The notes beneath the pieces are model-generated. The model was not told the origin of the DNA. It saw only the letters and a list, made by a program, of their open reading frames with translations, and ran no database searches. Positions 47,688 to 55,401 of a DNA stretch of 64,000 nt are shown here, piece by piece. Positions within the stretch are counted from its first letter, which is position 1; each line of letters starts with the position of its first letter. The stretch spans positions 62,001 to 126,000 of the forward strand of contig JACQPN010000022.1 of NCBI GenBank assembly GCA_016207515.1, written 5' to 3'. A program made the translations under genes and the position numbers. Source of the DNA: Euryarchaeota archaeon. GTDB taxonomy: Archaea > Thermoplasmatota > SW-10-69-26 > JACQPN01.

Positions 47688-48023
47688 CTACGACACCACG
47701 TGGCTCGACATGAGTTGAAAATAGTCTCCCTTGTAGGTCAAGTAGACGAGTCCGTTTGTCGTCCACCACGGGCCCGGATCACGGCTTTGGAATGACCTGA
47801 TGAGTTTTCCTATGTCTTCGCGCGGGTAATCCTCTCTCGCTCCAGCGGCGCCTGCCTCGATTTTCTGAAACATCCGGTTCAGGACGGCGTTCTCATCTAG
47901 GTCAGATTGGGTGACGTTAATGACGTGATTCGGAGCCTTTTCCAATTTCGTCAAAACGAGTCTCCAGTCGCCATCCGTGTCGGTCGTCGTACAGCCAGTT
48001 GACGCAGCTAGAAGTAAGATCAC
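47688..48023 (-). CDS. Short lipoprotein of the NVT/PGPWW paralogous family, copy E
   Basis: A 111-residue lipoprotein. The signal is short from the GTG at 48023 (VILLLAASTGC with lipobox Cys); the frame is open further upstream but lacks a good start, so the N-terminus may have been damaged by the event that left the adjacent protease remnant. The mature part has the family core PNHVINVTQSDLDENAVL, then LIRSFQSRDPGPWW and VYLTYKGDYFQL. Four paralogues lie within the next 6 kb on the same strand. Function is unknown. It is convergent with ridA. Confidence 0.7.
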   Translation of the reverse strand: MILLLAASTGCTTTDTDGDWRLVLTKLEKAPNHVINVTQSDLDENAVLNRMFQKIEAGAAGAREDYPREDIGKLIRSFQSRDPGPWWTTNGLVYLTYKGDYFQLMSSHVVS

Positions 48024-48084
48024 GGTGAAAACCCACAGGCGATGAGCCGGAACGAGAGGCCTTTTGCGACCGTATGCCAGATGC

Positions 48085-48138
48085 TTACGCAGTGTTGATC
48101 ACGATCCAGCTCCTTATCCTTGCGGCGTTGTCGTGGCC
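48085..48138 (-). pseudogene. Remnant of the C-terminus of a metzincin protease
   Basis: The last 16 codons before a TAA read HDNAARIRSWIVINTA, nearly identical to the C-terminus of the two protease copies upstream (HNNAARIRNWIVSNNA and HNNAARIRGWIVANGA). Nothing else of the protease is left here. It lies between lipoprotein copies D and E, exactly where a protease gene would be in the ancestral repeat unit. Confidence 0.75.
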
Positions 48139-48191
48139 ACCGGTTCTTCGCTCGCGTCGAACCCGAAAGCTGCGGAGATGGAGCCGCGACG

Positions 48192-48623
48192 TCAGCCGTC
48201 GACCGCCGTGCGGGCGTAGCTCAACCCGAAAAAGTGGTCGGCGTATGTGATGTTTACGGTGCCCGGACTCTGCCACCAAGGGCCGGGCAAGCGTTCTTGC
48301 AGGTCGTGGATGAGGGCCAAACTGTTTTCTTTCAGATTCGGCTCCGACAGGACCCCCGGGGGTCTCCTGGCTTCCCAATCCTCCAGCAGACGTTTCAGGG
48401 CAACGTTTCCTTCAAGGTCTTGTGTCGTGACGTTGACGTAGTACGGGGGTCGCGCCGGGAGTTCGCGCAATCTTAGGCTTTCATCGTATCGGTCTTCTGC
48501 AGTCACACAACCCGCGAGCGCGAGGTTCGCTAAGACCAACACAACAAGAGGAAACCTGGTGGCTCCAGGCGGTGCGCTCCAACGACGAGAGTCAATCAGA
48601 ACCTTGATTCGCGCCGCCGGCAC
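48192..48623 (-). CDS. Short lipoprotein of the NVT/PGPWW family, copy D
   Basis: A 143-residue lipoprotein. The frame is open to 48695, but a GTG at 48623, just after the copy C stop, gives a plausible start; the signal TRFPLVVLVLANLALAGC ends in a lipobox. The family core is PPYYVNVTTQDLEGNVALKR, a variable stretch, then LIHDLQERLPGPWW and INITYADHFFGL-like strands. It follows copy C directly with no protease between them. It is followed by a 50-bp protease remnant. Confidence 0.75.
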   Translation of the reverse strand: MPAARIKVLIDSRRWSAPPGATRFPLVVLVLANLALAGCVTAEDRYDESLRLRELPARPPYYVNVTTQDLEGNVALKRLLEDWEARRPPGVLSEPNLKENSLALIHDLQERLPGPWWQSPGTVNITYADHFFGLSYARTAVDG

Positions 48624-48630
48624 GGCGCCG

Positions 48631-49047
48631 CTACGCGACTGGCGCTTTCTTGGCCGTGAGATCATAAAACCCATCGTCATGAGAAACGTACGCATAACTT
48701 GGCCCCTTCCACCAAGGTCCTGGGTCCCGATCTTGAAAAACCTTGGTCAAACGAACGCTGTCTTCGTACGGATTACTTTCTCGGGCCGTTACGCCGGGTT
48801 GCACCTTTTCGAACAGTCGCTCAAGAATGGGATACGTCGCAAGATCTTCGGCGGTCACGTTCGCGTAGTGATCAGGTGGTGTCGCCAGTTGGCGAAGCAA
48901 TAACTCCTCATATTCGCGGCCGCCCGTGGAAGCGCAGCCGCTGATCGAGCCAAACAAAACAAGGGCGACCATGACCCATCCGCGACTTCGTATGCTTTCC
49001 CTCAGTCCAGGCTCCGCGCGTCGGCGTTTAGGCCCCGTTAGCAACAA
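48631..49047 (-). CDS. Short lipoprotein of the NVT/PGPWW family, copy C
   Basis: A 138-residue lipoprotein starting at TTG 49047, 20 bp inside the end of the truncated protease gene. A basic N-terminus precedes the signal VMVALVLFGSISGCAS with lipobox Cys. The mature part carries PPDHYANVTAEDLATYPILERLFEKV, YEDSVRLTKVFQDRDPGPWW and AYVSHDDGFYDL. It is closest to copy B. The overlaps along this strand indicate one transcript for the array. Confidence 0.78.
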   Translation of the reverse strand: MLLTGPKRRRAEPGLRESIRSRGWVMVALVLFGSISGCASTGGREYEELLLRQLATPPDHYANVTAEDLATYPILERLFEKVQPGVTARESNPYEDSVRLTKVFQDRDPGPWWKGPSYAYVSHDDGFYDLTAKKAPVA

Positions 49048-49813
49048 TCCACCCCCTAATTCTTGCTGCGTTGTTGTGATTGATGTTGCGGTCGCCGTCG
49101 GAGAACGCGTCGACGAAACTCAGCCAGAAAGGCCCATACATGATGGTCCTGCACCAAGATGGTTGACCCAGCGCGATGCAGGCGTAGTCATCCGCGAACG
49201 GGTGATCCCCATTATGATTATGGCCAAGTTCGTGTTTGATGGCATACGCGCGCTCCGCGGCGTTGATTGGCCGCTGGGCATGACAGGCGTCGTTCCTTTG
49301 CTGTATGAAAGAAAAGACAAAATCTGGAGAGTACCCCGCCTTCGGCGGGCTCTCCGAAAGCCCGATGAGGCAAGCTCTGGGGGTGCCAAAGTAGTCATCG
49401 GTCCCTTCGAAGTCCTTGCCGGAGAGGAAAGCCGCCCATCGTGTGGGCGGCACCAATTCCTTCGTGACGCCGAATGACGTCTCGAATTGGTGGAATGAGG
49501 CAGGCATATCGTAACTCGTCTGGCTTCCATCCAGCATCATCCCCGTGATAGCGTATGTCAAGCCGACCTGTGGAACGTAGACGTCGTTGACCAATGAGAT
49601 CATGTATTCCGCTTGCTCAAACCACGTGCTTCCGCCGTAGACGGCCAAATACTCGGAATCTACGTAAATGTCGATGTAGGTCTGGTACAGCGCGTTCGAT
49701 ATCCAGACGATTTGAGTGACCTCGGAGGACAGGCCCCGGTCATCAGTGACGTTCAACGTGACCTCGTGGTCGCCCGAGTATTCGTATTCGTGGGATGCGG
49801 GGACGCCGGCCAC
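49028..49813 (-). CDS. Truncated PKD-metzincin protease, copy B (probably non-functional)
   Basis: A 261-residue open frame that matches only the last 260 residues of the intact protease copy A. It starts in the middle of the PKD domain (ASHEYEYSGDHEVTLNVTDDRG) and keeps the whole metzincin domain with HELGHNHNGDH and the Met-turn CRTIMYGPFW. The signal peptide, N-terminal domain and LamG domain are lost, and the homology begins 11 nt after the stop of lipoprotein B, so a deletion joined the two. Without a signal it should not reach the cell surface. The frame itself is intact, which suggests the loss is recent. Confidence 0.85.
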   Translation of the reverse strand: MAGVPASHEYEYSGDHEVTLNVTDDRGLSSEVTQIVWISNALYQTYIDIYVDSEYLAVYGGSTWFEQAEYMISLVNDVYVPQVGLTYAITGMMLDGSQTSYDMPASFHQFETSFGVTKELVPPTRWAAFLSGKDFEGTDDYFGTPRACLIGLSESPPKAGYSPDFVFSFIQQRNDACHAQRPINAAERAYAIKHELGHNHNGDHPFADDYACIALGQPSWCRTIMYGPFWLSFVDAFSDGDRNINHNNAARIRGWIVANGA

Positions 49814-49823
49814 GTAACGCGCG

Positions 49824-50228
49824 CTACTGCACCACCTTGGTGATAAGTAGCCTCAGGAAGGTGGCGTTGTGAAGAAGATAGACCTCCTCAGCGCTGACCC
49901 ACCACGGTCCGGGATCGCGTGCCTGGAACGATCGGATCAAGCGCACACTATCCTCATAGGAATACTCTTCCTTAGCCGCGATAGATCCGCCTTCAACCTT
50001 TTCAACCAGTTTCTTGAGAACCGGGTTGTTATCCAAATCAGATTCAGTCACGTTAACGAAGTGCTCCGGGGGGTTCGCCTGTTTCGATAGTGCAAGTCGA
50101 TAGTGTGCCGGTGTGTCGTTTGATAGACAGCCACCAGACATTACGAGCATGAGAATCAGGGCAACACCCCATGCGACAAAACCGACGACACGAGATGATC
50201 GCCGTGGCGGACAACCCTTCTCATGCAT
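49824..50228 (-). CDS. Short lipoprotein of the NVT/PGPWW family, copy B
   Basis: A 134-residue lipoprotein whose ATG lies 8 bp inside the end of the intact protease gene. The signal GFVAWGVALILMLVMSGGCLS ends in a lipobox. The mature part has PPEHFVNVTESDLDNNPVLKKLVEKVEGG, then YEDSVRLIRSFQARDPGPWW and VYLLHNATFLRL. Every paralogue keeps the N-x-T sequon in the same place (NVT here), a target for the AglB enzyme encoded in this window if exported. The function is unknown. Confidence 0.8.
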   Translation of the reverse strand: MHEKGCPPRRSSRVVGFVAWGVALILMLVMSGGCLSNDTPAHYRLALSKQANPPEHFVNVTESDLDNNPVLKKLVEKVEGGSIAAKEEYSYEDSVRLIRSFQARDPGPWWVSAEEVYLLHNATFLRLLITKVVQ

Positions 50229-53169
50229 TGTTGCTCACAATCCAATTTCGGATTCTCGCCGCGTTGTTATGGCTCGCGTCGCGCGTTCCGTCGGAGAATT
50301 GATCGACGAATGTAAGATGGAATGGCCCGTACATGATGGTTCGGCACCATGATGGCGTTCCCATCGAGACACACGGGAAATCGTCGGCGTAGGTGTGATT
50401 GCCGAAATGGTTGTGACCAAATTCATGTTTTACAGCATATGCTCGTTCAAAGGTGTTCACCGGATGTCCCGTGTGGCAAACGTCACCCGTCTGTTGTACG
50501 ATGGAAAAAATTAGGCTGGGGTCGTATGGTATCATGCTTCCATCTGCTCTGCTCGGTTCTTCCCCGAGCCCAATTAGACAAGCTCTCGGGGTTCCTCCGT
50601 AGTCGGCCGCGCCCGTGAAATCCTTTCCTGAAAGGAACGTTGCCCACTTCGTCGGCTCTACCAGTTCTTTGATTCCAGAAAAGAAGGAATCCTCGAATTG
50701 GTCAAATGCCGCCGGCATGTCGAAGCTCGTTTGGCCTCCGTCCTGCGCCATTCCAGTAATCCCGTATTGCAGGCCAACCTGGGGCACATAGACGTCGTTA
50801 ACGAGGCCAATCGTGTACTCGGCCTCTTGGAACCACGATGATGTGCCGTACAGGCCCATGTATTGCGTGTCCACGTAGATGTCGACATAAGTCTCATAGA
50901 GCGCGTTCGAGATCCACACGTGGTAAGTGACCTCGGCCGACGCGCCCCGGTCGTCCGTGACGTTCAACGTGACCTCGTGGTCTCCGGAGTATTCGTATTC
51001 GTGGCTTGCCGTGGGGCCGGTCGAGGTGGTTCCGTCGTGCCAATCCCAACGGTAGGAAGCAATGTAGCCGTCCTCGTCATTGCTCCGGCTTCCGTCGACG
51101 TTTACAATCGGATCGTTATTGAAGACCATCATATCTGGGAACGGGATGAAATTGTTTGCCGGGGCAAGGCGTTCCACTTTGCTCACCCTGACCTCATCGA
51201 TGTACCCATAGAATTGATCGTCTCCATTGGACCCCGAGCCTATGTAGGCGTCGGAATAATCGGAGTCGAGGCACCCAAGGCTTGGGTAGGTCTGGGTAAT
51301 TCCATCGACCGACAGCCTCCAATATCCGCCATCGAACGAAAAGGCGATGTGGTGCCATTCGTCCAAGGAAAAATATGTTGGGTGCCAAAACTCGTGCCAG
51401 TGTGGATGATTGTCGTTGTAACTGAAACGTAATTGCCATTTCGGCTTTGGTTGGCCTGTCGTGTAGTCTGTGTCGCCGTGCGCATAAAGCGAGAAGTAGT
51501 ATGGTTCGTCGAAGATGATGCCGCCGCTCGCCTCGCCTTGGCCGGCGCTCATCGGAAAAATTGCCGCCTCGATGGTTCCCTGGCACGACGAACCCCAGGT
51601 CGCCGGTCCCATGGCGATGTCGCATGGAATTACGTGGAGCCACGTTCCAGAATAGAAGCCAAGTGGAAAATATCCGGAAAACCCGGGCGTCGGCTCGTGG
51701 TTCAGTGGTCCCCAAGAGCCAGTCGCGGTATTCCACCTAGCATCGTTGGTATTCCCGGGACTGACAGGCTCGTCACAGTAAGTGGAATCGTGGACCGTTC
51801 GGCCGGAACCCTCGTCAAAATGCCATAGCGCTTTTGTTTTCTGATCCACGATGAAAGTGCTAAAATGCGGCGCGTGGATGGCGTATGCTTCGCCTTGGTC
51901 GCCGCTTGGAATGTCCGTGCCGTCCGCATATCGAAAGGAGGCATCGTAGAACCCCAACGAGTGAAGCCAAGTCTTGTTGACCCGGAGAGTTTGCCCCGAC
52001 GTGTCGGGTCCCGTTATTTCCATCACCAGTGGACGGAAATGTCGCGTTGGCATCGAACGCGTGCCGTTGATGTCGGTGACCGTCACGCTCGATTCTTCCA
52101 TTCCTGGCCATTGTGTGACCCTGATCGCCATGGGTCGGCGCGACATCGAGGCCGTCGATGAGGCGCCCATCGAGAACCCTTCGTCGGCGGAAATGTCGAA
52201 GGGAACGCCGATGATCGTGACGCTTGTCGTGGGATCGGCGACTTCGAACTTCAGCCATTTGCCTCCTCGGACCAGCTCGAACGGCACGTTGAACGACGCT
52301 TCCGGGACCGTTTGGTCAACGTAGGCCCTTTTCACCAGGACTTTCATCGGCGAAGGGTCAGTGTCGGTGATCCGAAGTTCCAACCTCTTATGGGCCGCAT
52401 CTGACATTTTTGCGATCGTCGTGGTCATTCTCGGGGAACCGTCGCGCGATTCCGCGGCTACATCCGGGTCATCCTTTGGTGCCCCTGGGGAGGCGCTTCC
52501 TCCCGAAGACGAGGTTCCAGTGTTCGCGCCGTCAGTTTGCTTCTGGGCGATGGGCGCGGGGGCGAGAACGACGCTCGCGGGACGCGCGGAGTCGGTCGTT
52601 GTCGGTTCAAGCGACGGTTGCCCGCGTGAATCGTATGTGACCGTCGGCACGCAGCCGACGCCACCCTTCGGATCCTGCGACTCGATGTAGATGTCGCGCT
52701 CGCCGTCCATTATGTGCGCGTCCACCCAGACGCCGTTGAGGCTCATGGTCGCGCGTATGTCCGTTCCAGGGACCTTGCCTCGGAACATGTGTTGACGGTA
52801 CGGGATCGTGACAGGCTGTCCGGATTCGTCAAGGCTCTGGATCGTGGCCCCAGGCGCCATCAAGGAATACGGCTTGACCTCGAAGGTGTAGATCCGCCCC
52901 TGCGCAGAAAGGGTCACGATGCCCGTGTCGAGGGCTTGGCGCCGGATCTCCATGGCGTCCATGCACGTGCGTTCCCCGCCGAGATAACCCGCAATCGGAT
53001 CGGGCAATCTGATTTCGGGAATGGGCGGCATGAGATTAGGGATTGAAACGTCCCAACCAATCCCGCTTCCCGTTTCAAGGGTCGGCGGCGCCATCATGAT
53101 CAGGAAAACGGCGAACGCGTGGTGGCCACGTCTGGCTCTCTCTCTCTCTCTCTCTCTCCCTCGCCTCAT
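50221..53169 (-). CDS. Secreted LamG-PKD-metzincin metalloprotease, copy A (intact)
   Basis: A 982-residue protein. The N-terminus MRRGRERERERARRGHH is encoded by an AG dinucleotide tract and precedes a short hydrophobic segment (AFAVFLIMMAPPTL) that may be the signal. Residues 60-200 form an unknown beta domain, followed by a Thr/Ser/Gly-rich linker and a second beta domain. A concanavalin/LamG-like domain (ALWHFDEGSG ... EWHHIAFSFDGG ... GYIDEVRVSK) spans about 440-640 and a PKD domain about 650-740. The C-terminal zincin has HEFGHNHFGNH and the Met-turn CRTIMYGPF, the reprolysin-like metzincin pattern. A CTTATAG-type TATA box lies near 53200-53207. Confidence 0.88.
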   Translation of the reverse strand: MRRGRERERERARRGHHAFAVFLIMMAPPTLETGSGIGWDVSIPNLMPPIPEIRLPDPIAGYLGGERTCMDAMEIRRQALDTGIVTLSAQGRIYTFEVKPYSLMAPGATIQSLDESGQPVTIPYRQHMFRGKVPGTDIRATMSLNGVWVDAHIMDGERDIYIESQDPKGGVGCVPTVTYDSRGQPSLEPTTTDSARPASVVLAPAPIAQKQTDGANTGTSSSGGSASPGAPKDDPDVAAESRDGSPRMTTTIAKMSDAAHKRLELRITDTDPSPMKVLVKRAYVDQTVPEASFNVPFELVRGGKWLKFEVADPTTSVTIIGVPFDISADEGFSMGASSTASMSRRPMAIRVTQWPGMEESSVTVTDINGTRSMPTRHFRPLVMEITGPDTSGQTLRVNKTWLHSLGFYDASFRYADGTDIPSGDQGEAYAIHAPHFSTFIVDQKTKALWHFDEGSGRTVHDSTYCDEPVSPGNTNDARWNTATGSWGPLNHEPTPGFSGYFPLGFYSGTWLHVIPCDIAMGPATWGSSCQGTIEAAIFPMSAGQGEASGGIIFDEPYYFSLYAHGDTDYTTGQPKPKWQLRFSYNDNHPHWHEFWHPTYFSLDEWHHIAFSFDGGYWRLSVDGITQTYPSLGCLDSDYSDAYIGSGSNGDDQFYGYIDEVRVSKVERLAPANNFIPFPDMMVFNNDPIVNVDGSRSNDEDGYIASYRWDWHDGTTSTGPTASHEYEYSGDHEVTLNVTDDRGASAEVTYHVWISNALYETYVDIYVDTQYMGLYGTSSWFQEAEYTIGLVNDVYVPQVGLQYGITGMAQDGGQTSFDMPAAFDQFEDSFFSGIKELVEPTKWATFLSGKDFTGAADYGGTPRACLIGLGEEPSRADGSMIPYDPSLIFSIVQQTGDVCHTGHPVNTFERAYAVKHEFGHNHFGNHTYADDFPCVSMGTPSWCRTIMYGPFHLTFVDQFSDGTRDASHNNAARIRNWIVSNNA
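53136..53158. repeat. CT/AG dinucleotide microsatellite inside the protease start
   Basis: Twenty-three bases of pure CT repeat (eleven units plus one base) lie 12 nt inside the coding region of the protease. On the coding strand the AG repeat encodes alternating Arg and Glu. Gain or loss of one unit shifts the frame, so the tract could switch the gene on and off by slipped-strand replication. Confidence 0.9.
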
Positions 53170-53326
53170 GCTAACCCCGATAGGCGATGCCCGTGCCAGC
53201 TATAAGAACGTTGGTCCGGAAGCTTCGAGGGGGACGGTGAAGCGGCAAGGCGCCGTCAGGCACCGTCCACCGTTCATGGCAAGCGGGTCGTCCTCGGCCG
53301 TCGCATCCCGGGATGTCCGCGCGGCT

Positions 53327-53692
53327 TCATAGGATCGGTCTATGGGCCGAAAGCTCAAAAAACTCGCGTCCGTAGAAGATGTGCACAACGCCTTCTCCGG
53401 GCCACGGTGGCTGCGGTGAAATGTCTTGCAGTTTCTTGATAACGGCCAGCCCCTCGGCGTATGGCGTTTCGACTTCCGCCTCGTCGCCGCCATTCGCGAG
53501 CCATTTCTGGTGGACGTTTTGAAGAGCCGGTGTCGGGAACGCGACCCCTGTGGCGTTCACGAAGTGCCCGGGTTCGGTCGCGAGAAGGTGGAGTCGCAGC
53601 ACGGGTCCGTTGTTTGAACCGGGGGTGATGCAGCCTGCGATGGAAATGGCGACGAGGGCGAGAGCAGTGAAGATGCGCGCTTTTTCCCTCAC
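53327..53692 (-). CDS. Short lipoprotein of the NVT/PGPWW family, copy A (divergent)
   Basis: A 121-residue lipoprotein. Start GTG 53692 overlaps the gltX stop (GTGA), giving the signal REKARIFTALALVAISIAGC with lipobox. The core is EPGHFVNATGVAFPTPALQNV, then VIKKLQDISPQPPWPGEGVVHIFYGREFFEL. It keeps the N-x-T sequon (NAT) and the closing FFEL but has PPW in place of PGPWW, so it is the most diverged copy. The longer open frame to 53866 is a shadow of gltX. It precedes the intact protease by 158 bp and opens the array. Confidence 0.78.
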   Translation of the reverse strand: MREKARIFTALALVAISIAGCITPGSNNGPVLRLHLLATEPGHFVNATGVAFPTPALQNVHQKWLANGGDEAEVETPYAEGLAVIKKLQDISPQPPWPGEGVVHIFYGREFFELSAHRPIL

Positions 53693-55401
53693 GGATGCGC
53701 GTAATAACACAACAACTCCGTCCCCGGCATGTCTATCCTGACAAACCCGAATCTCTCGAACTGCACGACCTTTCCGACCTCTTTCCACGCTTCTGCCTCG
53801 ACGACTCCTGTGATCTCCGTGCCGTCCGGCATGATGACCCTGCAAGGTCTCGCGTCCGGCGGGCACCAGTGGATGATGCGCGCCCCTTGTTTGAGTATCC
53901 CGATGTCGTTTCCGATGTAATGGGCCGTGGGCCCCGTCGGGGTGGTCTTGATGAGGAAGTTCCCGAGGTCCTTGAGCCGGATCTTAACGTCGTTTTGGAG
54001 GAGGGGAAGGTCCTTTGGCGTGATGCTTACGGTCAGTTTGCCGCCCTTCGGCGCCAGGTGATGCGTCCTCGTTCCCCGCTCCGGGTGGTCTGGGTGGCGC
54101 GGCGGGTGGGCGTTCATCTGCGAGTCGTTGTGTATCTCAAGCGGTTGCGGGTCTTCCACGAAGAAGTAACGGTTCGCGTCGTCGTCAACGAGTTTCCTAT
54201 TCTCCGCGTAGAGGTTCTCCGCCGGCACTTCGATGTCCTGCATGGACATCCCAAAACTTAGGATGAAGCGGCGAAGTGCTTCCGGCCGGATGCCACGCTT
54301 TTCGAGCGATTGGATCGACCATGTGCGGGGATCATGCCAACCCTTGTACTGGCCCGACATTACGTCGGAGCGGGACTTGCTCTTGGAAAGTTTCGCCTCG
54401 GCCACGCGAAGAATGCCGAAGTGACTGAAGTGGACGTCACGCTTCGCTCCTTCAAGGGCCCAGATGAAACGCTCCATCTCGTCCTCTATTACGAGGTCCT
54501 TTCCCCGAACGACATGCGTGATGCCGAGTTCCTGGTCGTCGACGGCCCAGGAGAATTCGAGCATCGGCCAGACGCGGTACTTCGTCCCGACGCGCGGGTG
54601 AGCGCGTGTGCTGATTCGAAGAAGCACGCGGTCGCGAAACGCCGGGTTCTTGTGGCGCATGTCGGTCTTCAACCGCACGATGGCGGACCCTTCGGCGTAC
54701 TCGCCTGAGAGCATCTTCTCCCAGTCCGAGAGGTTCTCTTCGACAGATTGGGCGCGGTGGGCGCACTCCTCGCCAGCGTCGCGGCGCCGTTTCACCTCGT
54801 CGCCCGGGCATTTGCACACGTACGCGTTGCCGGCTGTCAGGATCTTTCGAGCATGCTCGTAGAAGAGCTTCAGCCGGTCGGACTTGTAGACCTCGTCGGC
54901 GATTTTGACGCCCATCCATTTCAACGCGCCCCGGATGAGGTCGTACGCCTCGAGAACAGGGAACTTCTCCTCGCTTCCCGCGGTGTCGTCGAAGACGAGA
55001 AGCATCTTCCCCGAGTGGCGTCTCACGTACTCGTCGTTCAAGATCACCATGCGGGCGTTCCCGATGTGAAGCGGGCCGGACGGGTATGGGGCAAGGCGCA
55101 TCACGACCTGTCCGTCCACCGCGCCCGGCAATGGTGGCAGGACGTGGGTCTCGTCTTTCTTTTCGACGACAAGGAGTTCGGGCGCTTCTTTTTCGAGAGC
55201 AGCACGTCTCGACGCCGTGTCCATCGCCTTCACGCCCGCGATCGCCTCGCGAACTACTTGGTTGACTTCCTTCGCCCGGGATCGAAGGTCGGGTCGGTCG
55301 GCCATTATCCTGCCCATGACCGGCCCGGGCTCCGGTTCGGACCCGTGGAGGACCGCGTTCTGGAGAGCGAAAAGCCGTGCCTTCCGGCGCACTTCCTCCA
55401 T
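53689..55401 (-). CDS. gltX: Glutamyl-tRNA synthetase, archaeal type (GluRS/GlnRS)
   Basis: A 570-residue class I synthetase. The HIGH motif is APYPSGPLHIGNARM and the KMSKS equivalent is KLSKSKSRSD. The catalytic domain includes LLVFDDTAGSEEKF, and the C-terminus is the beta-barrel anticodon domain of the archaeal/eukaryotic (GlnRS-like) type, with DIEVPAENLYAENRKLVDDDANRYFFV. The archaeal enzyme charges tRNA-Glu and, non-discriminating, tRNA-Gln before amidation by GatDE. It lies one base after idsA in a gene string with rnj, and its stop overlaps the start of a short lipoprotein. Confidence 0.96.
   Translation of the reverse strand: MEEVRRKARLFALQNAVLHGSEPEPGPVMGRIMADRPDLRSRAKEVNQVVREAIAGVKAMDTASRRAALEKEAPELLVVEKKDETHVLPPLPGAVDGQVVMRLAPYPSGPLHIGNARMVILNDEYVRRHSGKMLLVFDDTAGSEEKFPVLEAYDLIRGALKWMGVKIADEVYKSDRLKLFYEHARKILTAGNAYVCKCPGDEVKRRRDAGEECAHRAQSVEENLSDWEKMLSGEYAEGSAIVRLKTDMRHKNPAFRDRVLLRISTRAHPRVGTKYRVWPMLEFSWAVDDQELGITHVVRGKDLVIEDEMERFIWALEGAKRDVHFSHFGILRVAEAKLSKSKSRSDVMSGQYKGWHDPRTWSIQSLEKRGIRPEALRRFILSFGMSMQDIEVPAENLYAENRKLVDDDANRYFFVEDPQPLEIHNDSQMNAHPPRHPDHPERGTRTHHLAPKGGKLTVSITPKDLPLLQNDVKIRLKDLGNFLIKTTPTGPTAHYIGNDIGILKQGARIIHWCPPDARPCRVIMPDGTEITGVVEAEAWKEVGKVVQFERFGFVRIDMPGTELLCYYAHP

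What the first reader, a model, noticed from the sequence alone, without database searches (positions are those of the whole stretch)
47688..53692. Array of five paralogous short lipoproteins interleaved with metzincin protease copies
Five lipoproteins (starts near 53692, 50228, 49047, 48623, 48023) share an order of motifs: P-x-H/Y-[FYV]-x-N-[VA]-T, a variable helix, a P-G-P-W-W-like core and a closing F/Y-x-x-L. Between them lie an intact secreted LamG-PKD-metzincin, a truncated copy and a 50-bp remnant. The simplest reading is an amplified two-gene unit (lipoprotein + protease) with serial loss of proteases. Gene coupling and alternation suggest the lipoprotein acts with the protease, for instance as a membrane-bound partner, inhibitor or immunity-like factor. 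I do not recognise the lipoprotein family, so this may be an undescribed surface system.
Basis: partly seen in the sequence, partly recalled or inferred. Interest (0 to 1): 0.85.

Follow-up and report, generated by a model that had tools for sequence, protein, structure and literature searches.

The report
Archaeal protease–lipoprotein array with repeat switch
An archaeon carries a secreted protease gene followed by a row of leftover protease ends and small membrane-anchored proteins, laid out like the toxin-plus-antidote arrays of bacteria, and the protease gene starts with a stutter repeat that probably flips it on and off, a kind of switch for which I found no report in archaea.

Summary
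Five paralogous lipoproteins (mature length 101, one 105 aa) surround one full LamG-PKD-metzincin gene, one 5'-truncated copy and a 17-codon remnant, all on the minus strand. The lipoprotein start overlaps the protease stop in three of five cases. Simple amplification then loss fits poorly: the truncated copy shares its first ~40 codons (end of the PKD domain) with the full gene much more closely than the rest (third-position identity 31/40 versus 93/220, p=5e-5), and it stayed open without a signal peptide. Insertion of successive 'protease tip + lipoprotein' modules leaves such scars in bacterial CDI, Rhs and T6SS effector-immunity arrays. Best reading: an effector-immunity-like array whose lipoproteins restrain the protease at the cell surface; binding is inferred. 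The lipoprotein has no Pfam or NCBIfam family but is a branch of a wider archaeal family of small surface domains found elsewhere without proteases. New: the protease ORF starts with the genome's only GA tract of seven or more units, (GA)11. Only 7 of 390 genomes of the phylum carry (GA)10+, mostly at secreted-protein, glycosyltransferase and restriction-enzyme genes, which suggests repeat-driven phase variation in archaea.

The parts
50221..53169 (-). full-length secreted protease: basic N-terminus with GA tract, unannotated N-terminal half, LamG-like domain, PKD domain, C-terminal metzincin catalytic domain
   Evidence: ORF; Pfam Laminin_G_3 1.5e-12 and PKD_4 5.4e-16; HEFGHNHFGNH and CRTIMYG seen in the sequence
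53136..53158 (-). (GA)11 tract, codons 5-11 of the protease ORF, between start codon and hydrophobic segment; candidate phase-variation switch
   Evidence: a change by 1 or 2 units gives a stop after 21-32 aa; only GA tract of 7 or more units in the genome
53199..53206 (-). TATA-like TTCTTATA upstream of the protease ATG (approximate position)
   Evidence: read from the sequence; promoter not tested
49028..49813 (-). orphan protease tip: end of PKD domain plus metzincin domain, no signal peptide, starts 10 bases behind lipoprotein B
   Evidence: 69% identical to the full copy; Reprolysin_5 E 2.7e-4, below cutoff; breakpoint near codon 41
48085..48135 (-). remnant of a third protease copy: last 16 codons and stop
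   Evidence: score 69 vs 45 maximum in 2000 shuffles
53327..53692 (-). lipoprotein A (upstream of the protease; start overlaps the gltX stop)
49824..50228 (-). lipoprotein B (start overlaps the full protease stop)
   Evidence: AlphaFold2 model pLDDT 89.9
48631..49047 (-). lipoprotein C (start overlaps the end of the truncated protease)
48192..48623 (-). lipoprotein D (directly behind C, no protease trace before it)
47688..48023 (-). lipoprotein E (behind the remnant; start GTG 48023 or CTG 48092)
53689..55401 (-). gltX, archaeal glutamyl-tRNA synthetase, upstream neighbour; gltX-GGPP synthase-RNase J order is kept in relatives, the array is not
   Evidence: TIGR00463 gltX_arch; relatives

Best explanation
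This is an effector-immunity-like array built around a secreted metalloprotease. The long protein is exported by its N-terminal signal, its LamG and PKD domains bind surfaces, and its C-terminal metzincin domain is the exchangeable 'tip'. Each tip carries its own small lipoprotein directly behind it, with overlapping stop and start, so tip and lipoprotein travel as one module. New modules enter by recombination in the conserved PKD end and push the older tip and lipoprotein downstream, where tips are cut off at the 5' end and erode while the lipoproteins are kept. The lipoproteins sit on the outer face of the cell membrane and most likely bind the protease there, protecting the producer from its own and sister cells' protease; the PGPWW loop that this subfamily adds to the wider family is the candidate contact. 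A (GA)11 tract directly after the start codon probably lets slippage switch the protease on and off, while lipoprotein A, coupled to the essential gltX upstream of the tract, would be made in both states. Shown: anatomy, homology, tract, breakpoint signal. Inferred: module insertion, binding, protection, switching.
For: Tip + lipoprotein order with overlapping stop and start in three cases. The truncated tip begins in PKD, 10 bases behind lipoprotein B. Breakpoint: third positions match 31/40 in the first 40 codons vs 93/220 after (Fisher p 5e-5), MaxChi break at codon ~41, permutation p 0.004. The catalytic parts are saturated at synonymous sites with dN 0.25, so the tips are old and constrained. 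If the PKD ends (dS about 0.45 or more) diverged since truncation, a neutral 261-codon frame would stay open with P about 0.005. Remnant real. GC is 0.53-0.58 in the array vs 0.61-0.64 in the flanks, and there is no array behind gltX in the nearest relative. The same scars (downstream orphan tips without start signals, kept immunity genes, leftover effector ends) are described for CDI/Rhs (PMC3150448) and T6SS arrays (PMC5361080). Secreted metzincins with a small adjacent inhibitor gene exist: serralysin/Inh (PMC3034196). GA tract.
Against: No binding or inhibition was tested; the protease model failed (pLDDT 29) and complexes could not be predicted. The two tips are the same family (69% identical), not unrelated tips as in typical polymorphic toxins, and no delivery machinery was recognised. 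Distant lipoprotein homologues live without metzincins, so the domain itself is not a dedicated protease inhibitor. Close homologues exist in one genome only, so coupling cannot be tested by comparison. Gene conversion of the PKD end after a plain duplication would leave a similar breakpoint. The gene overlap means an off-switch might also lower lipoprotein B.
Confidence: 0.45

Rival explanations
1. Plain tandem duplication of a protease + lipoprotein pair followed by decay of the extra proteases; the PKD similarity is later gene conversion. The lipoprotein is a surface partner or anchor of the protease.
For: All copies lie head to tail in one locus and nowhere else in the genome; the unit overlap is conserved.
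Against: The truncated copy begins directly behind lipoprotein B; the breakpoint at codon ~41 needs an extra conversion event; lipoproteins A and D have no protease trace before them.
Confidence: 0.25
2. The lipoproteins are a locally expanded, functionally independent surface family (the wider archaeal family is usually alone); the protease is a chance neighbour or shares only the transcript.
For: 12 distant homologues in 11 genomes have no metzincin nearby and no common neighbour.
Against: Start/stop overlap with the protease end in three copies, including the remnant, shows linked descent; the close subfamily with the PGPWW insertion is found only here.
Confidence: 0.2
3. The lipoproteins are substrates or tethers: the protease is held at the membrane by them, or cleaves them to release a signal.
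For: Membrane anchor plus constant mature length; one confident compact fold.
Against: No direct evidence; a compact, confident fold is not what a cleavable substrate needs, and retention of several orphan lipoproteins is harder to explain.
Confidence: 0.1

Closest known systems
CDI and Rhs orphan toxin/immunity modules (PMC3150448)
   Same: long secreted gene, small partner gene directly behind, downstream 5'-truncated tips that mostly lack start signals and share a block with the main gene, each followed by its partner gene
   Different: tips here are the same protease family, the partner is a lipoprotein outside the membrane, no CdiB or Rhs shell, archaeal, toxicity unknown
T6SS immunity gene arrays of Vibrio (PMC5361080)
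   Same: sequential displacement model: kept partner genes with leftover 3' ends of effectors
   Different: no T6SS genes recognised here; here the paralogues are known from one genome only, so duplication cannot be excluded by phylogeny as it was there
Serralysin protease with Inh inhibitor (PMC3034196)
   Same: secreted metzincin with a small exported inhibitor encoded next to it, about 10 kDa, presumed to protect the producer
   Different: no RTX repeats found; the lipoprotein has no Pfam hit and a predicted alpha/beta model, whereas Inh is a beta-barrel (own knowledge)
Protealysin and emfourin (PMC9505478)
   Same: metalloprotease and inhibitor in one operon, proposed as effector and immunity
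   Different: protealysin is a thermolysin-type intracellular enzyme, not a metzincin; the lipoprotein matches no Pfam or NCBIfam model
VARTIG modules of Thermococcales (PMC8416519)
   Same: archaeal, long secreted protein with recombining C-terminus, followed by small membrane proteins, compared by its authors with polymorphic toxins
   Different: Ig-domain C-terminus there, metzincin here; no sequence link tested
Simple-sequence-repeat phase variation in bacteria (PMC11868660)
   Same: repeat tract at the 5' end of a surface or secreted protein gene, unit change shifts the frame
   Different: archaeal; the review names archaea only as a future area

Membership tests
CDI/Rhs/T6SS-type effector-immunity orphan array | long exported protein with C-terminal effector domain | tested here: met
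   982-aa ORF, C-terminal metzincin motif
CDI/Rhs/T6SS-type effector-immunity orphan array | small partner gene directly behind each tip | tested here: met
   overlap of protease end and lipoprotein start at B, C and E
CDI/Rhs/T6SS-type effector-immunity orphan array | orphan tips without signal peptide that share a block with the main gene | tested here: met
   truncated copy and breakpoint
CDI/Rhs/T6SS-type effector-immunity orphan array | tips of unrelated families (polymorphism) | tested here: not met
   the two tips are 69% identical
CDI/Rhs/T6SS-type effector-immunity orphan array | known delivery machinery | tested here: inconclusive
   no Pfam delivery domain in the protein; genome not searched for machinery
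CDI/Rhs/T6SS-type effector-immunity orphan array | tip is toxic and partner neutralises it | not testable with these tools
   needs biochemistry
Serralysin-Inh pair | metzincin catalytic motif and Met-turn | tested here: met
   HEFGHNHFGNH / HELGHNHNGDH and CRTIMYG
Serralysin-Inh pair | RTX repeats in the protease; Inh family partner | tested here: not met
   no such Pfam hit in protease or lipoproteins
Reprolysin (M12) Pfam family | score above the curated cutoff | tested here: not met
   Reprolysin_5 21.7 bits vs cutoff 27
Protealysin-emfourin pair | emfourin family inhibitor | tested here: not met
   no Pfam or NCBIfam hit for any lipoprotein
VARTIG module | hypervariable C-terminal Ig domain | tested here: not met
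   C-terminus is a metzincin domain
SSR phase-variable gene | repeat tract in the 5' part of the ORF, unit change gives early stop | tested here: met
SSR phase-variable gene | tract length differs between cells, isolates or reads | not testable with these tools
   one assembly per species; no reads

The most novel reading that the evidence does not exclude
Members of this archaeal phylum use long GA tracts as contingency switches for surface and defence genes. Seven of 390 genomes carry a (GA)10+ tract, one tract each: three lie within the first ~15 codons of an ORF (secreted metzincin, glycosyltransferase, secreted surface protein), one splits an Mrr/ResIII restriction gene, two lie just upstream of genes (a secreted C25 peptidase and an unknown gene), one has no clear gene. 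In this genome the switch turns a secreted protease on and off inside an archaeal effector-immunity-like array.
Probability: 0.5. Interest if true: 0.82.

Novelty: new variant of a known kind. Interest (0 to 1): 0.68.

Why it matters
Weapons-with-antidote arrays and repeat-driven on/off switching are well described in bacteria, but the reviews and papers I could search show very little of either in archaea. If right, the locus offers an archaeal metzincin with candidate protein inhibitors, an unnamed archaeal surface-domain family with a confident predicted fold, and a directly checkable case of phase variation: raw reads over a 22-base tract would settle it.

Tried and rejected
Genome-collection pattern search with the lipoprotein profile gave one locus (L024, Proteobacteria MAG) that is a pattern artefact: the match lies antisense inside a chain-length-determinant-like gene. 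Weak hits L025 and L027 share little more than signal peptides. Viral contigs and plasmids gave nothing. The protease search in 390 genomes gave one other, spurious hit. AlphaFold2 on the two metzincin copies failed (pLDDT 29), so no fold search was run on it. Foldseek of the lipoprotein against PDB gave no match; against viral models the best were weak, among them a DUF7979 protein of Halogranum tailed virus 1 (TM 0.39), which I could not confirm and keep only as a lead. No solved structure matches the family by sequence. Considered and not preferred: GA tract as neutral low-complexity sequence (possible, but its uniqueness in the genome and the positions of the other tracts argue against it).

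Full report
WHAT IS THERE. The window lies in a 2.67-Mb, 25-contig archaeal genome (98% complete); its gltX is of the archaeal type (TIGR00463, 524 bits). Behind gltX, on the minus strand, lie lipoprotein A, a 982-aa protease gene, lipoprotein B, a truncated protease copy, lipoproteins C and D, a 16-codon protease remnant and lipoprotein E. The five lipoproteins align over their whole length (25-46% identity to B, 12 invariant columns) and have the same mature length, 101 aa (105 in D). The remnant is not chance (score 69 against at most 45 in 2000 shuffles). Lipoprotein B starts inside the protease stop region (aacaATGcatga), C starts upstream of the truncated copy's stop, and the remnant has CTG at the position of B's ATG.

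WHAT THE PROTEASE IS. Pfam finds Laminin_G_3 (1.5e-12) and PKD (5e-16) in the full copy, and only a sub-threshold Reprolysin_5 hit in the truncated copy. HExxHxxGxxH and a Met-turn are present in both, so a metzincin is well supported by motif, but no curated family cutoff is met. A single-sequence search of 390 genomes of the phylum with the catalytic part found only these two copies and one spurious hit.

WHAT THE LIPOPROTEIN IS. No Pfam or NCBIfam family, no solved relative and no PDB fold match. AlphaFold2 gives a confident model (mean pLDDT 89.9, pTM 0.80, order beta, helix, helix, beta, helix, beta, beta). Profile searches of the phylum found two distant relatives (L026, L028), and with these added, about ten more: small membrane-anchored or lipoprotein domains with the pattern P..Y.N.T..el..fP.L..AI ... 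E ... YY.i. A profile of the window's five against a profile of the others alone gives hhalign probability 97% and E 1.2e-10 over the whole domain; the second profile was collected with the help of the first, so this number is somewhat flattered. None of the 12 loci has a metzincin in the fetched flanks and there is no common neighbour. The window's subfamily differs by an insertion of about nine residues carrying PGPWW. No homologue occurs in the six other genomes of the class.

HOW THE ARRAY AROSE. The truncated copy begins in mid-PKD, 10 bases behind the stop of lipoprotein B. Over its first 40 codons its third positions agree with the full copy at 31 of 40, afterwards at 93 of 220 (Fisher p 5e-5; MaxChi break at codon ~41, permutation p 0.004). 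The catalytic parts are saturated at synonymous sites with dN 0.25. A plain tandem duplication should leave even divergence. The pattern is what insertion of a new 'tip + lipoprotein' module by recombination in the PKD end would leave: a short duplicated PKD block, a 5'-truncated old tip, and kept older lipoproteins. Gene conversion is the remaining alternative. The orphan tip lacks a signal peptide but is intact; if the PKD block (dS about 0.45 by NG86, about 1 by YN00) dates the truncation, a neutral frame would have stayed open with probability about 0.005. The array is poorer in GC than its flanks. gltX, GGPP synthase and RNase J are conserved in order in relatives, and in the nearest one gltX is followed by gyrA instead.

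THE GA TRACT. The protease ORF carries (GA)11 at codons 5-11, between its ATG and the hydrophobic segment. One or two units more or fewer end the protein after 21-32 residues. It is the only GA tract of seven or more units in the genome, and there is no CA tract of six or more. In 390 genomes of the phylum only seven carry (GA)10 or more, one tract each. The other six: (GA)15 at codons 4-13 of a family-2 glycosyltransferase, in frame; (GA)11 seven codons behind an ATG and before a signal peptide of a secreted protein, ATG out of frame as assembled (an in-frame TTG exists); (GA)18 inside an Mrr/ResIII restriction gene split into two frames at the tract; (GA)17 in the gap before a secreted C25 peptidase; (GA)16 just before the likely ribosome-binding site of an unknown gene; (GA)13 without a clear gene. 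Three of seven in the first ~15 codons has P about 0.003 under random placement (rough assumptions: 88% coding, 900-base genes). These gene classes are the ones known as phase-variable in bacteria. Mono- and dinucleotide repeats are generally suppressed in prokaryotes (PMC4060949), and the 2025 review of phase variation names archaea only as a future area (PMC11868660). Length variation itself could not be tested.

MECHANISM. Shown: anatomy, paralogy, breakpoint, tract. Inferred from position and analogy: tip and lipoprotein form an effector-immunity-like module; the lipoprotein binds the protease at the cell surface; old lipoproteins are kept because sister cells may still make the old tip, as argued for T6SS arrays (PMC5361080); the tract switches the protease. 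Lipoprotein A, overlapping the gltX stop, would be made regardless of the switch.

KNOWN SYSTEMS. Architecture: CDI/Rhs orphan modules (PMC3150448) and T6SS immunity arrays. Biochemistry: serralysin and Inh (PMC3034196), protealysin and emfourin (PMC9505478). Archaeal parallel: VARTIG (PMC8416519). It works like the first group if the inference holds, but is not filed as a member: tips are not polymorphic in kind and no delivery system was recognised.

SCORES. The array alone would be about 0.55; the repeat switch with its phylum-wide pattern raises it to 0.68.

Noticed in passing
window 53136-53158: (GA)11 tract at codons 5-11 of the secreted protease, the only GA tract of seven or more units in the genome; candidate phase-variation switch.
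   Followed up: yes
L088 (G087), tract 1491-1520 in GA orientation: (GA)15 directly behind the start codon of a family-2 glycosyltransferase in another genome of the phylum, in frame as assembled.
   Followed up: partly
L091 (G317), tract 1501-1536: (GA)18 inside an Mrr_cat_2/ResIII restriction gene, reading frame split at the tract as assembled.
   Followed up: partly
L092 (G206), tract 1501-1522: (GA)11 between an ATG and the signal peptide of a large secreted protein; the ATG is out of frame as assembled, an in-frame TTG exists.
   Followed up: partly
L087 (G171), tract 1501-1534: (GA)17, written TC on the gene's strand, in the gap before a secreted C25-type peptidase.
   Followed up: partly
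L075-L086: Unnamed archaeal family of ~80-aa surface-anchored domains, some as lipoproteins, some behind several membrane helices; no Pfam or NCBIfam model.
   Followed up: partly
L074 15610-16089: DUF7979 protein of Halogranum tailed virus 1 is a weak structural match to the lipoprotein model (TM 0.39); possible haloarchaeal branch of the family. The assignment of the model hit to this ORF rests on its length of 160 aa.
   Followed up: partly
window 50221-53169: GC of the protease gene falls from about 0.60 in the N-terminal half to 0.54 in the LamG-PKD-metzincin half, as if the gene were a mosaic.
   Followed up: partly
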